A stretch of 5,051 bases of DNA, taken from NCBI GenBank assembly GCA_030621075.1, contig JAUXII010000115.1, positions 1 through 5,051 on the forward strand, in the 5' to 3' direction. This document shows, one piece after another, positions 234 to 2,304 of this stretch. Made by a program: the position numbers and the translations under genes. The notes beneath the pieces are model-generated. The model was not told the origin of the DNA. It searched no databases and saw nothing but the letters and a program-made list of their open reading frames with translations. Source of the stretch: Lentimicrobiaceae bacterium. GTDB lineage: Bacteria; Bacteroidota; Bacteroidia; Bacteroidales; JAGONC01. Numbering within the stretch: the stretch's first letter is position 1; the number at the start of each line of letters is the position of its first letter.

Positions 234-240
234 CCCCGGA

Positions 241-246
241 CTTCAG
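241..246. repeat. Left copy of 6-bp target-site duplication CTTCAG
   Basis: CTTCAG directly abuts the left terminal repeat of the 108-bp element. The same hexamer in the same orientation abuts the right end at 355-360. Because it is a direct repeat lying inside an otherwise inverted structure, it breaks the palindrome at its two central bases. A single long hairpin would not explain this, but a target duplication would. Confidence 0.72.
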
Positions 247-354
247 AGGCTGTGTGGAAATTAAAAGTCAACCCTCTGAGAATTGAATATTTGAATTCTT
301 TCTCAGATACCTACCCGAGTAAACTACGCAGGGGAAATCGTTTTCACACAGCCT
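247..354. mobile_element. 108-bp MITE-like element with terminal inverted repeats
   Basis: The ends are AGGCTGTGTGGAAA (247-260) and TTTTCACACAGCCT (341-354), which are inverted repeats matching at 13 of 14 positions. A 6-bp direct repeat CTTCAG lies immediately outside both ends, as expected for a target-site duplication. The interior has no coding capacity, so any movement would need a transposase supplied in trans; this makes it a MITE or an internally deleted insertion sequence. The end sequence resembles the terminal repeats of some DDE-transposase insertion sequences that begin with GAGGCTGT-like tips (IS1182-like families come to mind), but that family assignment is from memory and needs a database match. 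Orientation and parent element are unknown. Confidence 0.75.
275..307. repeat. Inner inverted repeat of the 108-bp element
   Basis: TCTGAGAA (275-282) is the exact reverse complement of TTCTCAGA (300-307). Further inside, GAATT (280-284) can pair with AATTC (294-298), so the stem can be extended with a small bulge. RNA or single-stranded DNA from the element could therefore form a second hairpin inside the one made by the terminal repeats. Such internal palindromes are common in MITEs. Confidence 0.55.
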
Positions 355-360
355 CTTCAG
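355..360. repeat. Right copy of 6-bp target-site duplication CTTCAG
   Basis: This is the direct-repeat partner of 241-246, sitting between the right terminal repeat of the element and the right arm of the GC-rich stem. In the reconstructed empty site the two copies collapse to one and form the entire loop of the hairpin. Confidence 0.72.
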
Positions 361-401
361 TCCGGGGAAATAGAGGAGAAACAGAATTCGCGTTTAAATA
401 G

Positions 402-409
402 TATCTTTG
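402..409 (+). promoter_or_regulatory. Candidate Bacteroidota -7 promoter element for the dehydratase gene
   Basis: TATCTTTG matches the TAnnTTTG -7 consensus of the Bacteroidota primary sigma factor. It ends 20 bases before the ATG at 430, so transcription would start only about 15 bases upstream of the gene. I see no clear TTTG at the expected -33 position (about 377-383), so the promoter is incomplete by consensus. The hairpin and mobile element end 34 bases upstream of it. Confidence 0.45.
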
Positions 410-429: not shown

Positions 430-2304
430 ATGTTAACCATTATTAAACACACCCCTCGCTGGCTGATATTCCTGATCGATATACTGATCGTGCTCAGTTC
501 ACTCCTCCTCGCTTACCTCGTAAGATTTAATTTTAATATTCCACCAAATGAATTGGGCCCACTGCCATCAATTTTACTTTTTGTATTGCTGATCAGAGGC
601 TTGAGTTTTGTTTTGTTGCGGACGTATGCCGGCATTATCAGATACACAAGCACCGAAGATGCTGTTCGTATATTTCTCGTGATCCTTGGCGGTAGTTTGT
701 TTTTTGTTTTAACAAACATTTTTACTTATTATTTCATAAACCAAAAATATTTCATCCCCTTTTCAATTATTATTATTGAATTTATTACCAGCATTTTCAT
801 CATGACCACCTTTCGTTTGCTGGTCAAGATCACCTATCTCGAAATCATCAACCCTTCTAAAGAAAAATCGAAAGTGATCATATTTGGTGCAGGAGAAGCC
901 GGAGTGATCACAAAAAGGGCACTGGACAGGGATGCCGGTTCAAAATTAAAGGTTATTGGTTTTATTGATGATGATAAAAAGAAGGCTGGTAAAAAACTTG
1001 AAGGGGTTGATATTTTCGGGCCGGAAAAAATGGAAAGGCTTTTAAGGAGACATCAAATTGACCACCTTATTCTTTCTGTCCAAAATCTTTCTCCCGACAG
1101 GAAAAAAGAGATCATTGAAACCTGCCTTGAATACGAAACGAGGGTACTGAATGTTCCGCCTGTTATAAAGTGGATTAACGGTGAACTGAGCTTCAGCCAG
1201 ATCAGAGAAATTAATATTGATGACCTGCTTGGACGCGAGATCATTAAGTTGGACGACAAGGCGGTCAGTGAAGAACTCTCAGGAAAAAACATCCTGGTTA
1301 CAGGGGCTTCAGGTTCTATTGGGAGTGAAATAGCCCGTCAGGTTGCTAAGTATAAGCCAAATAAGCTAATGCTCCTCGATCAGGCAGAATCCCCTTTGCA
1401 TCAACTGGAGCTGGAATGTGCTGATATTTTCAGATCAAAGAACTGTGAAATTATTATTGCCGACATCTGTAATAAAGTAAGAATGGAAAAGATATTCCAT
1501 GACTTTAAACCAACTATTATTTACCATGCAGCAGCTTATAAGCATGTACCTATGATGGAGAACAACCCTGTTGAAGCGTTGCATACAAATGTTATAGGCA
1601 CCAGAATATTGGCTGATCTGGCCGTAAAATATAATGTCGGTAAATTCATTATGATCTCTACTGATAAAGCCGTTAACCCGGCCAACGTAATGGGAGCTTC
1701 CAAGAGAATTGCCGAGATGTATACACAATCACAGAACCAACAGGATACAACCAGGTTTATTACTACCCGGTTTGGCAATGTGCTGGGCTCTAATGGCTCG
1801 GTAATACCTCTTTTTAAAAAGCAAATAGCAAGTGGAGGTCCAATCACGATCACACATCCGGAGGTAACGCGTTATTTTATGACCATTCCGGAAGCAAGCC
1901 AATTGGTATTGGAAGCAGGTGCTATGGGTAAAGGTGGTGAGATCTTTATTTTTGACATGGGTAAATCAGTGAAAATTACCGACCTGGCAAAAAAAATGAT
2001 TAAACTTTCCGGGCTTACACTGGGGAAAGATATTCAAATTGCCTATTCAGGCCTTCGCCCCGGTGAAAAATTGTATGAAGAATTGCTAAACGATAAGGAA
2101 AACACAGTTCCTACACACCACCCTCAAATCATGATTGCTAAAGAGAGAGAGTATAATAGGATAGCAAATAATGGAAAAATAAATGAGCTAATTGCGTTGT
2201 TTGAGGAACAAAATAATGAGAAAATAGTCAGAAAGATGAAACAAATTGTACCGGAATTTAAAAGCGCCAACTCCATTTATGAAGAACTGGACACCGTTTG
2301 CTGA
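430..2304 (+). CDS. Membrane-anchored nucleotide-sugar 4,6-dehydratase (CapD/WbpM/PglF family)
   Basis: This 624-residue protein is complete and of usual length for the long, membrane-bound members of the family. Residues 1-135 contain about four hydrophobic helices (roughly 12-31, 47-64, 81-102, 108-133). A first Rossmann-like domain starts at about 147 with FGAGEAG (152-158). The catalytic extended SDR domain starts at about 286 with the NAD(P)-binding TGASGSIG (291-298), followed by HAAAYKHVPMMENNP (366-380), STDKAVNP (410-417) and MGASKR (421-426). Met421 sits where ordinary SDRs have the catalytic Tyr, which is typical of WbpM and PglF; Lys425 is retained. Known members remove water from UDP-GlcNAc to give a 4-keto-6-deoxy sugar, the precursor of QuiNAc, FucNAc or bacillosamine-type sugars for capsule, O-antigen or protein glycans. 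The exact product and stereochemistry cannot be read from the sequence. An ATG at 423 is out of frame; 430 fits the family N-terminus (TPRWLIFLID). No Shine-Dalgarno lies at normal spacing. No glycosyltransferase is adjacent in the window. Confidence 0.95.
   Translation: MLTIIKHTPRWLIFLIDILIVLSSLLLAYLVRFNFNIPPNELGPLPSILLFVLLIRGLSFVLLRTYAGIIRYTSTEDAVRIFLVILGGSLFFVLTNIFTYYFINQKYFIPFSIIIIEFITSIFIMTTFRLLVKITYLEIINPSKEKSKVIIFGAGEAGVITKRALDRDAGSKLKVIGFIDDDKKKAGKKLEGVDIFGPEKMERLLRRHQIDHLILSVQNLSPDRKKEIIETCLEYETRVLNVPPVIKWINGELSFSQIREINIDDLLGREIIKLDDKAVSEELSGKNILVTGASGSIGSEIARQVAKYKPNKLMLLDQAESPLHQLELECADIFRSKNCEIIIADICNKVRMEKIFHDFKPTIIYHAAAYKHVPMMENNPVEALHTNVIGTRILADLAVKYNVGKFIMISTDKAVNPANVMGASKRIAEMYTQSQNQQDTTRFITTRFGNVLGSNGSVIPLFKKQIASGGPITITHPEVTRYFMTIPEASQLVLEAGAMGKGGEIFIFDMGKSVKITDLAKKMIKLSGLTLGKDIQIAYSGLRPGEKLYEELLNDKENTVPTHHPQIMIAKEREYNRIANNGKINELIALFEEQNNEKIVRKMKQIVPEFKSANSIYEELDTVC

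What the first reader, a model, noticed from the sequence alone, without database searches (positions are those of the whole stretch)
234..367. Small mobile element inserted exactly into the loop of a hairpin
Seen directly: perfect 7-bp arms (234-240, 361-367), direct CTTCAG repeats (241-246, 355-360), and a 108-bp interior with near-perfect 14-bp terminal inverted repeats. The three layers nest without a spare base. The restored empty site is a stem whose whole loop is the duplicated hexamer. Inference: the transposase that moved this element recognises hairpin loops (cruciform or terminator-like DNA) as targets, and duplication of the loop keeps a stem flanking both ends. Insertion sequences that prefer palindromes or terminators are known, but loop-exact insertion of a non-coding element of this size would be a specific targeting rule worth testing.
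Basis: partly seen in the sequence, partly recalled or inferred. Interest (0 to 1): 0.78.

Follow-up and report, generated by a model that had tools for sequence, protein, structure and literature searches.

The report
Miniature transposon in a hairpin loop
A 110-base passenger transposon has landed exactly in the four-base loop of a small DNA hairpin, and related elements in other bacteria do so far more often than chance, which gives a concrete test of whether some bacterial transposases choose targets by hairpin shape.

Summary
The sequence facts hold; the parse changes. The element is 246-355 (110 bp, ends GAGGCTGTGTGRAAA), the duplication is TTCA (242-245, 356-359), and the empty site is an 8-bp stem with a 4-base loop, CCCCGGAC-TTCA-GTCCGGGG. 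A 1704-bp autonomous IS1182-family element with the same ends sits in the same kind of hairpin. Of 22 related insertions with an exact 4-bp duplication, 9 lie in perfect 8-bp stems, against 0.2% with swapped flanks. With partners taken blind, 19 of 38 pairs have an exact duplication and 12 of those 19 pair at 7-8 of 8 positions; genomic background 0.11%. Identical cores sit in different stems and the hairpins also occur empty, so the stem is the target: a REP-like palindrome, concentrated beside Y1_Tnp genes. Hairpin targeting by IS1272 (IS1182 family) and REPs as IS targets are published; duplication of the loop alone was a hypothetical pathway (PMC5678879). Nine of the 22 copies and a CAG-ended IS1182 subgroup do not fit. 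Shape versus sequence recognition is open. The window's own genome is not held.

The parts
234..241 (+). Left arm of the target hairpin (CCCCGGAC)
   Evidence: Exact complement of 360-367; same position as the stem arms of related insertions
242..245 (+). Left copy of the duplicated loop, TTCA (4-bp target duplication)
   Evidence: Identical to 356-359; in 20 of 22 exact-duplication insertions the repeat is TTTA, TAAA, TTCA, TGAA or TTAA
246..355 (+). 110-bp non-coding miniature element with IS1182-type ends
   Evidence: No ORF of 60 aa or more overlaps it; ends match the autonomous IS1182 element L233:2969-4672
246..260 (+). Left terminal inverted repeat GAGGCTGTGTGGAAA
   Evidence: 14 of 15 bases match the inverted right end
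341..355 (-). Right terminal inverted repeat, GAGGCTGTGTGAAAA on the minus strand
   Evidence: Identical over 15 bases to both ends of the autonomous element L233
356..359 (+). Right copy of the duplicated loop, TTCA
   Evidence: As for 242-245
360..367 (+). Right arm of the target hairpin (GTCCGGGG)
   Evidence: As for 234-241
430..2304 (+). Downstream gene: membrane-anchored nucleoside-diphosphate-sugar 4,6-dehydratase-like protein (624 aa)
   Evidence: ORF list; NCBIfam matches to PseB and other sugar dehydratases, those shown all below their cut-offs; membrane anchor is my reading of the N-terminus

Best explanation
Positions 246-355 are a MITE, a non-autonomous derivative of an IS1182-family insertion sequence, moved in trans by an IS1182-type DDE transposase. 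It was inserted into the 4-nt loop of a 20-bp REP-like palindrome (CCCCGGAC-TTCA-GTCCGGGG). The two element ends were joined to opposite strands at the two stem-loop junctions, 4 bp apart, and gap repair duplicated TTCA, so each copy of the loop keeps one arm of the stem. Shown: the anatomy, the shared ends, the recurrence of loop-exact insertion in other genomes, and the independent existence of such hairpins. Inferred: that the window's element belongs to this group (it matches relatives only in the terminal repeats), that the transposase acts in trans, and that it prefers the hairpin or dyad form of a site with a TTYA-like centre.
For: Same ends, 4-bp duplication and hairpin in an autonomous IS1182 element (L233) and, with 7 of 8 pairs, in one with a 54% identical transposase in another genome (L341). 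Flank pairing in 22 exact-duplication insertions: 9 at 8/8, 3 at 7/8, mean 5.95 of 8; swapped-flank control mean 3.04, 8/8 in 0.2%. Background of 42,393 TTTA/TAAA/TTCA/TGAA/TTAA sites in 787 kb: 8/8 at 9, 7/8 or better at 46. Nearest-partner selection blind to the duplication: 19 of 38 pairs have an exact duplication and 12 of those 19 pair at 7/8 or better. One hairpin type lies filled once and empty twice within about 1 kb in L244. 21 empty hairpins of one type in G583, none in 14 other genomes; 20 of 21 have TTCA or TTTA loops on one strand. Hairpins are concentrated at Y1_Tnp genes.
Against: Of 22 exact-duplication insertions, 9 pair at 5/8 or less; one of these, L196, is an 8-bp stem with a 3-nt loop by inspection. 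19 of 38 blind pairs lack an exact duplication, though 6 of those 19 still pair at 6/8 or better. Of 13 distinct IS1182-type elements whose ends could pair (18 examined), 4 show the loop-exact hairpin (L233, L341, L349, L326), 1 has a stem but no duplication (L342), 4 with CAG or CAA ends duplicate ACGT without a hairpin (L344, L348, L351 in one genome; L345) and 4 show neither (L325, L346, L328, L127). In 9 loci looked at, I saw no loop-exact hairpin. The window's core shares only its ends with other copies, and its own genome is not held, so copy number and transposase could not be checked.
Confidence: 0.85

Rival explanations
1. The transposase recognises the REP-like palindrome, or the TTYA centre with its C/G-rich arms, as ordinary double-stranded sequence with dyad symmetry. 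Hairpin extrusion plays no part.
For: Duplications are restricted: 20 of 22 are TTTA, TAAA, TTCA, TGAA or TTAA. The targets are members of repeat families. Copies L187, L201 and L212 have a TTTA/TAAA duplication without a stem. In 10 relatives from viral contigs (an exact duplication was required) the repeat is GGCC, GGTC or GACC, and pairing does not exceed swapped flanks (5.3 against 5.6 of 12).
Against: Stem sequences differ between genomes and within one (CCCCGACC, CCGTCCGC, CCGTTACC in G292) while complementarity is kept. Two more distant IS1182 elements sit in unrelated hairpins with other loops (L349, ATGG in a 10-bp stem; L326, ACG in an 8-bp stem).
Confidence: 0.45
2. The whole 134-bp block 234-367 is one mobile unit and the outer stem is part of its ends.
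For: In a single copy the 27-nt inverted repeat is continuous. One relative, L188, has an inverted repeat running on through the loop.
Against: Identical cores lie in different stems (L203/L244), or in one stem type with different loops (L255/L266); near-identical ones in unrelated stems (L162/L180, 94% over 134 bp). Stems occur empty.
Confidence: 0.04
3. The structure is a cis-acting RNA or terminator of the downstream gene, kept for regulation, and not a mobile insertion.
For: Strong predicted fold; 62 bases separate it from the ATG at 430.
Against: No Rfam family matches. No T-run follows the hairpin on either strand. TATCTTTG, resembling the Bacteroidota -7 box TAnnTTTG (recalled), lies between it and the gene at 402-409, so it is probably outside the transcript. 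The anatomy recurs at other places.
Confidence: 0.05

Closest known systems
IS1272 / TnSha1 (IS1182 family), Staphylococcus (PMC4923244, PMC5678879)
   Same: IS1182-family transposase; reported targets are inverted repeats (hairpins) with little sequence in common.
   Different: IS1272 removes part or all of the stem-loop and leaves no target duplication, and some of its targets were reported as non-inverted repeats. Here the stem is intact and the loop is duplicated, the outcome that PMC5678879 drew as a hypothetical pathway c.
IS elements that target REPs: ISPsy8 (IS3), ISRm22 (IS4), ISPa11, ISPpu9, ISPpu10 (IS110) (PMC1525189)
   Same: Insertion into REP palindromes; ISPsy8 (3-bp repeat) and ISRm22 (6-bp repeat) insert at the axis of symmetry.
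   Different: Other IS families, Proteobacteria, autonomous elements. Here an IS1182-type MITE, Bacteroidota hairpins, and a 4-bp duplication equal to the loop.
TnpA-Y1 genes and their REPs (PMC6006769)
   Same: The target hairpins lie beside Y1_Tnp genes and are dispersed in the genome, like REPs around REP-associated transposases.
   Different: That is the target, not the inserted element. The adjacent genes carry the Y---Q--HH signature of subclass 1.2 in 9 of 11 loci, for which that paper's table gives no REP; the GTAG foot was not seen.

Membership tests
MITE of an IS1182-family IS | Terminal inverted repeats shared with an autonomous IS1182 element | tested here: met
   Right end 15/15 and left end 14/15 identical to the ends of L233, whose transposase scores 352.6 bits against NF033551 (cut-off 270)
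MITE of an IS1182-family IS | No transposase gene of its own; small size | tested here: met
   110 bp, no ORF of 60 aa or more
MITE of an IS1182-family IS | Target duplication of the same length as the autonomous relative | tested here: met
   TTCA, 4 bp; L233 TTAA, L341 TGAA
MITE of an IS1182-family IS | Multiple copies and a mobilising transposase in the same genome | not testable with these tools
   No whole genome is held for the window
IS1272-type stem-loop replacement | No target duplication, stem-loop deleted | tested here: not met
   Both arms and both loop copies are present
REP element (target hairpin) | Short palindrome dispersed in many copies | tested here: inconclusive
   In relatives: 21 copies of one hairpin type in G583; CCCCG-type stems like the window's at 7 places in 6 of 15 genomes. 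Copy number in the window's genome unknown
REP element (target hairpin) | Association with a REP-associated (class 2) Y1 transposase gene | tested here: inconclusive
   In relatives: 21 hairpins (<=1 mismatch, one inside a MITE) in 25.6 kb around the 8 Y1_Tnp genes fetched as loci, in 6 of 8 loci, against 77 in 787 kb. But 9 of 11 loci encode the subclass 1.2 signature, not class 2; 2 were not resolved. Not testable for the window
REP element (target hairpin) | GTAG/GGAG tetranucleotide at the foot of the hairpin | tested here: not met
   Foot reads TTAG in the window and mostly AATAG, AATTG or ATAA in relatives, by inspection
Intrinsic terminator | T-run after the stem | tested here: not met
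   Right flank AAATAGAGG; left flank read on the minus strand CTAATCAATG

The most novel reading that the evidence does not exclude
A clade of IS1182-family transposases in Bacteroidota selects targets by hairpin shape (extruded cruciform or single-stranded hairpin) with a TTYA-like loop, and joins the element exactly at both stem-loop junctions so that only the loop is duplicated. Hairpins spread by Y1 (HUH) transposases thus act as a moving set of landing pads for another transposon family.
Probability: 0.45. Interest if true: 0.7.

Novelty: new variant of a known kind. Interest (0 to 1): 0.53.

Why it matters
IS1182-family IS1272 is reported to replace hairpins without target duplication. 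Relatives that keep the stem and duplicate only the loop, with autonomous copies, MITEs, empty and filled sites available, turn a hypothetical pathway into one that can be tested with point mutations in one arm and compensating mutations in the other. It also suggests that one mobile family (Y1 transposases and their hairpins) supplies landing sites for another.

Tried and rejected
Terminator or RNA element: no Rfam match, no T-run. Copies in plasmids or phages: only short matches at E of about 1 or worse. A longer left-end pattern in viral contigs: 0 matches. A MITE pattern in viral contigs returned 5 loci, all found before. The 18-base core of the window's palindrome is intact in 7 viral contigs; I did not interpret these. 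Orthologous empty site: the closest relatives of the downstream protein are 66% identical over their full match, and 80 loci hold no exact copy of the ends or of the palindrome core; SucC in G292's family is at most 62% identical over its full length. An exact-end search in 32 genomes of those relatives found none. Relatives in viral contigs: flank pairing did not exceed swapped flanks. A generic end search on further IS1182 hits gave mostly unconvincing ends and was used only for L326, L341 and L349, already seen. Perfect 8-bp stems with a 4-nt loop (at least 4 G+C) number 6 in 400 kb of G569 and 10 in 387 kb of G292, against 0.0 and 0.7 in triplet shuffles; 2 of the 6 and 6 of the 10 have target-type loops, and two of those 6 lie inside MITEs. 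The G292 stretches were partly chosen around MITE tips, which raises rather than lowers the background. My first label for the Y1 genes, RAYT, was withdrawn.

Rows dropped: chose, for each left end, a partner (up to 4 mismatches) that gave an exact 4-bp duplication; pairs without one were dropped there and are counted (38 pairs, nearest partner, up to 2 mismatches; two of the 38 are doubtful, the 1150-bp L161 pair and L265). L195 (4 mismatches) is doubtful. In one search, 20 of the 22 rows were compared with background. From viral contigs, 11 of 39 loci gave an end pair with an exact duplication, 10 of which one search used.

Full report
Window and observation. The window reads as Bacteroidota-like DNA: a sugar-nucleotide dehydratase-like gene (430-2304), then a SucC-like gene on the minus strand, an ABC-transporter ATPase and a repeat protein (these last three names are my reading of the translations). 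No Rfam family matches.

Correct boundaries. One copy cannot say where flank ends and element begins, because two neighbouring bases match by coincidence. A scan of viral contigs for the 15-base end gave 39 loci. In 5 of 5 loci with both ends exact, a 4-bp duplication flanks GAGGCTG...CAGCCTC. Allowing mismatches and requiring a duplication, 11 of 39 loci gave a pair: 9 MITEs of 139-159 bp and two full-length elements, L082 (1587 bp) and L113 (1611 bp), whose transposases are IS1182 family (NF033551, 390.2 and 452.2 bits, cut-off 270). Applied to the window, the element is 246-355, the duplication TTCA, the stem CCCCGGAC/GTCCGGGG.

Relatives in Bacteroidota. Of 395 genomes drawn from the phylum, 1 (G292) carried a MITE with these ends. 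It holds 29 tips with at most one mismatch, against 3 for the reversed control. In its family 15 of 79 genomes carry the exact 15-mer. I fetched these places and paired ends by script.

Loop-exact insertion. With partners chosen to give an exact 4-bp duplication, 22 insertions (window included) were found. Outside the duplication the two flanks pair at 8 of 8 positions in 9, at 7 in 3, at 6 in 1, mean 5.95; the other 9 pair at 5 or less. Left flank of one copy against right flank of another (462 ordered pairs) gives mean 3.04, 6 or more in 6.9%, 8 of 8 in 0.2%. Taking the nearest partner without looking at the duplication gives 38 pairs: 19 with an exact duplication, of which 12 pair at 7 or 8 of 8; 19 without, of which 6 pair at 6 or more. 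In 787 kb of two of these genomes, 42,393 sites carry TTTA, TAAA, TTCA, TGAA or TTAA; 46 of them (0.11%) have 7 or 8 paired flanking positions. The duplication is one of those five in 20 of 22.

Autonomous elements. L233 (1704 bp, ends identical over 16 bases) lies in AACCCACGAC-TTAA-GTCGTGGGTT; its 486-aa transposase is IS1182 family (352.6 bits). L341 (transposase 54% identical, another genome) lies in CCCCTCCA-TGAA-TGGCGGGG, 7 of 8 pairs. Two more distant elements lie in other hairpins with other loops: L349 (ATGG, 10-bp stem) and L326 (ACG, 8-bp stem). L342 is flanked by a stem of at least 8 bp but has no duplication. L344, L348, L351 (one genome) and L345 duplicate ACGT with no hairpin; L325, L346, L328 and L127 show neither. 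For L336, L327, L343, L347 and L128 the script found no end pair (L323 is L233 again). Nine loci looked at showed no loop-exact hairpin, with ends only roughly defined. The rule therefore belongs to part of the family.

The stem is not part of the element. Cores L203 and L244 (one genome) are 100% identical over 98 bp yet sit in CCGCGACC-type (7 of 8 pairs) and CCACGATG stems; L255 and L266 are 100% identical with loops TTCA and TTTA; L162 and L180 are 94% identical in CCCCGACC and CCGTCCGC. In L244 one hairpin type occurs filled once and empty twice within about 1 kb. G583 has 21 intact CTCCRCCG-NNNN-CGGYGGAG hairpins (control 1), none in 14 other genomes; 20 of 21 have TTCA or TTTA loops on one strand, one has GTTA. 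In that genome L193, L255 and L266 are filled copies of this stem type, and L259 is another with inverted loops. CCCCG-type stems like the window's occur at 7 places in 6 of 15 genomes, 6 of the 7 with TTTA/TAAA loops.

What the hairpins are. Y1_Tnp (PF01797) genes are present in 11 of 12 of these genomes. Around the 8 fetched as loci by that call (25.6 kb) 21 hairpins of 8+4 form with at most one mismatch were found, in 6 of 8 loci, 19 of 21 with TTTA, TAAA or TTCA loops; one of the 21 lies inside a MITE. The background is 77 in 787 kb, 13 with those loops or TGAA. In L404 and L407 such hairpins flank the gene on both sides (genes located), and likewise in L244, L256 and L354. I first took this for the REP/RAYT arrangement. 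But 9 of 11 loci encode a protein with the signature Y---Q--HH (L403 and L408 gave no match to my motif and were not pursued), which PMC6006769 (passages read) gives for subclass 1.2 of TnpA-Y1, a Cyanobacteria/Bacteroidetes group with no REP listed. The GTAG foot is also absent. I therefore call the hairpins REP-like.

Mechanism. Shown: position, duplication, recurrence. Inferred: an IS1182 DDE transposase joins the element's ends to the two strands at the two stem-loop junctions, 4 nt apart, and repair duplicates the loop. PMC5678879 (abstract, passages and part 1 of 2 of the Discussion read) drew this as pathway c of a model, while reporting that IS1272 itself replaces the stem-loop without duplication and that some older copies had non-inverted-repeat targets. 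PMC4923244 (passages read) reports hairpin targeting and stem-loop deletion for IS1272/TnSha1 and says, citing a review that I did not read, that some IS1182 members target palindromes. PMC1525189 (abstract, Results and passages read) shows IS3, IS4 and IS110 elements inserting in REPs, ISPsy8 and ISRm22 at the symmetry axis, and explains imperfect duplications by recombination between copies; the same may explain mixed flanks seen here (for example L157, L160, L168).

Shape or sequence. Complementarity kept across different stems favours shape or dyad symmetry over a fixed sequence. But the targets belong to repeat families, their loops are restricted, and some insertions with a TTTA or TAAA duplication have no stem. 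In relatives from viral contigs pairing did not exceed swapped flanks. The question is open.

Novelty. Ten searches of the open library listed no report that I recognised as loop-exact duplication by an IS1182-family element or MITE; I read only the papers named here, and subscription papers and ISfinder were not searchable. I class it as a new variant of a known kind.

Limits. The window's genome is not held. Its element shares only the ends with other copies.

Noticed in passing
L404, L407, L244, L256, L354 (also L405, L406, L409, L410); Y1_Tnp genes with the Y---Q--HH signature that PMC6006769 assigns to subclass 1.2 (no REP listed there) are, in five loci, flanked on both sides by 8+4 hairpins with mostly TTTA/TAAA-type loops: a possible REP-like system for that subclass. 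L405 and L406 have the signature but no such hairpins within the locus.
   Followed up: partly
L259, L167, L177, L188: In these copies the loop beside one end is the reverse complement, not a repeat, of the loop beside the other (TGAA/TTCA, TTTA/TAAA, TAAA/TTTA, GGAA/TTCC). L259 and L188 have perfect 8-bp stems. Exchange between copies in oppositely oriented hairpins, or another insertion mode, would explain it.
   Followed up: no
L349:1172 and 1414: Two left ends 242 bp apart, both flanked by the same half-stem (CTGTCAAGG), before one transposase gene; it recalls the tandem left-side duplications reported for IS1272 (PMC5678879 abstract).
   Followed up: no
G292 contig C21:62878-63210 (L161, L218): A 333-bp element with matching ends contains two further intact 8+4 hairpins (L218:18012 and 18120), so hairpins and elements are nested or clustered there.
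   Followed up: partly
L218:6177, L231:12298, L407:2875: Some G292 elements carry an internal hairpin GAGCGAAA-TAAA-TTTCGCTC of the same 8+4 form as the target.
   Followed up: no
L352-L366 (G583): Most of the 15 hairpins printed are followed about 20 bases later by a second palindrome, GGGCTTTAGCCC or GGGCTTCAGCCC, suggesting a two-part repeat unit.
   Followed up: no
L081, L082, L088, L091, L101, L107, L108, L111, L113, L117: Elements with the same 15-bp ends in viral contigs duplicate GGCC, GGTC or GACC, in some cases at the centre of a GTCCGCT...AGCGGAC-like palindrome (L082 most clearly).
   Followed up: partly
window 402-409: TATCTTTG, resembling the Bacteroidota -7 promoter box TAnnTTTG (recalled), lies between the element and the dehydratase start, so the insertion sits just upstream of the likely promoter.
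   Followed up: no
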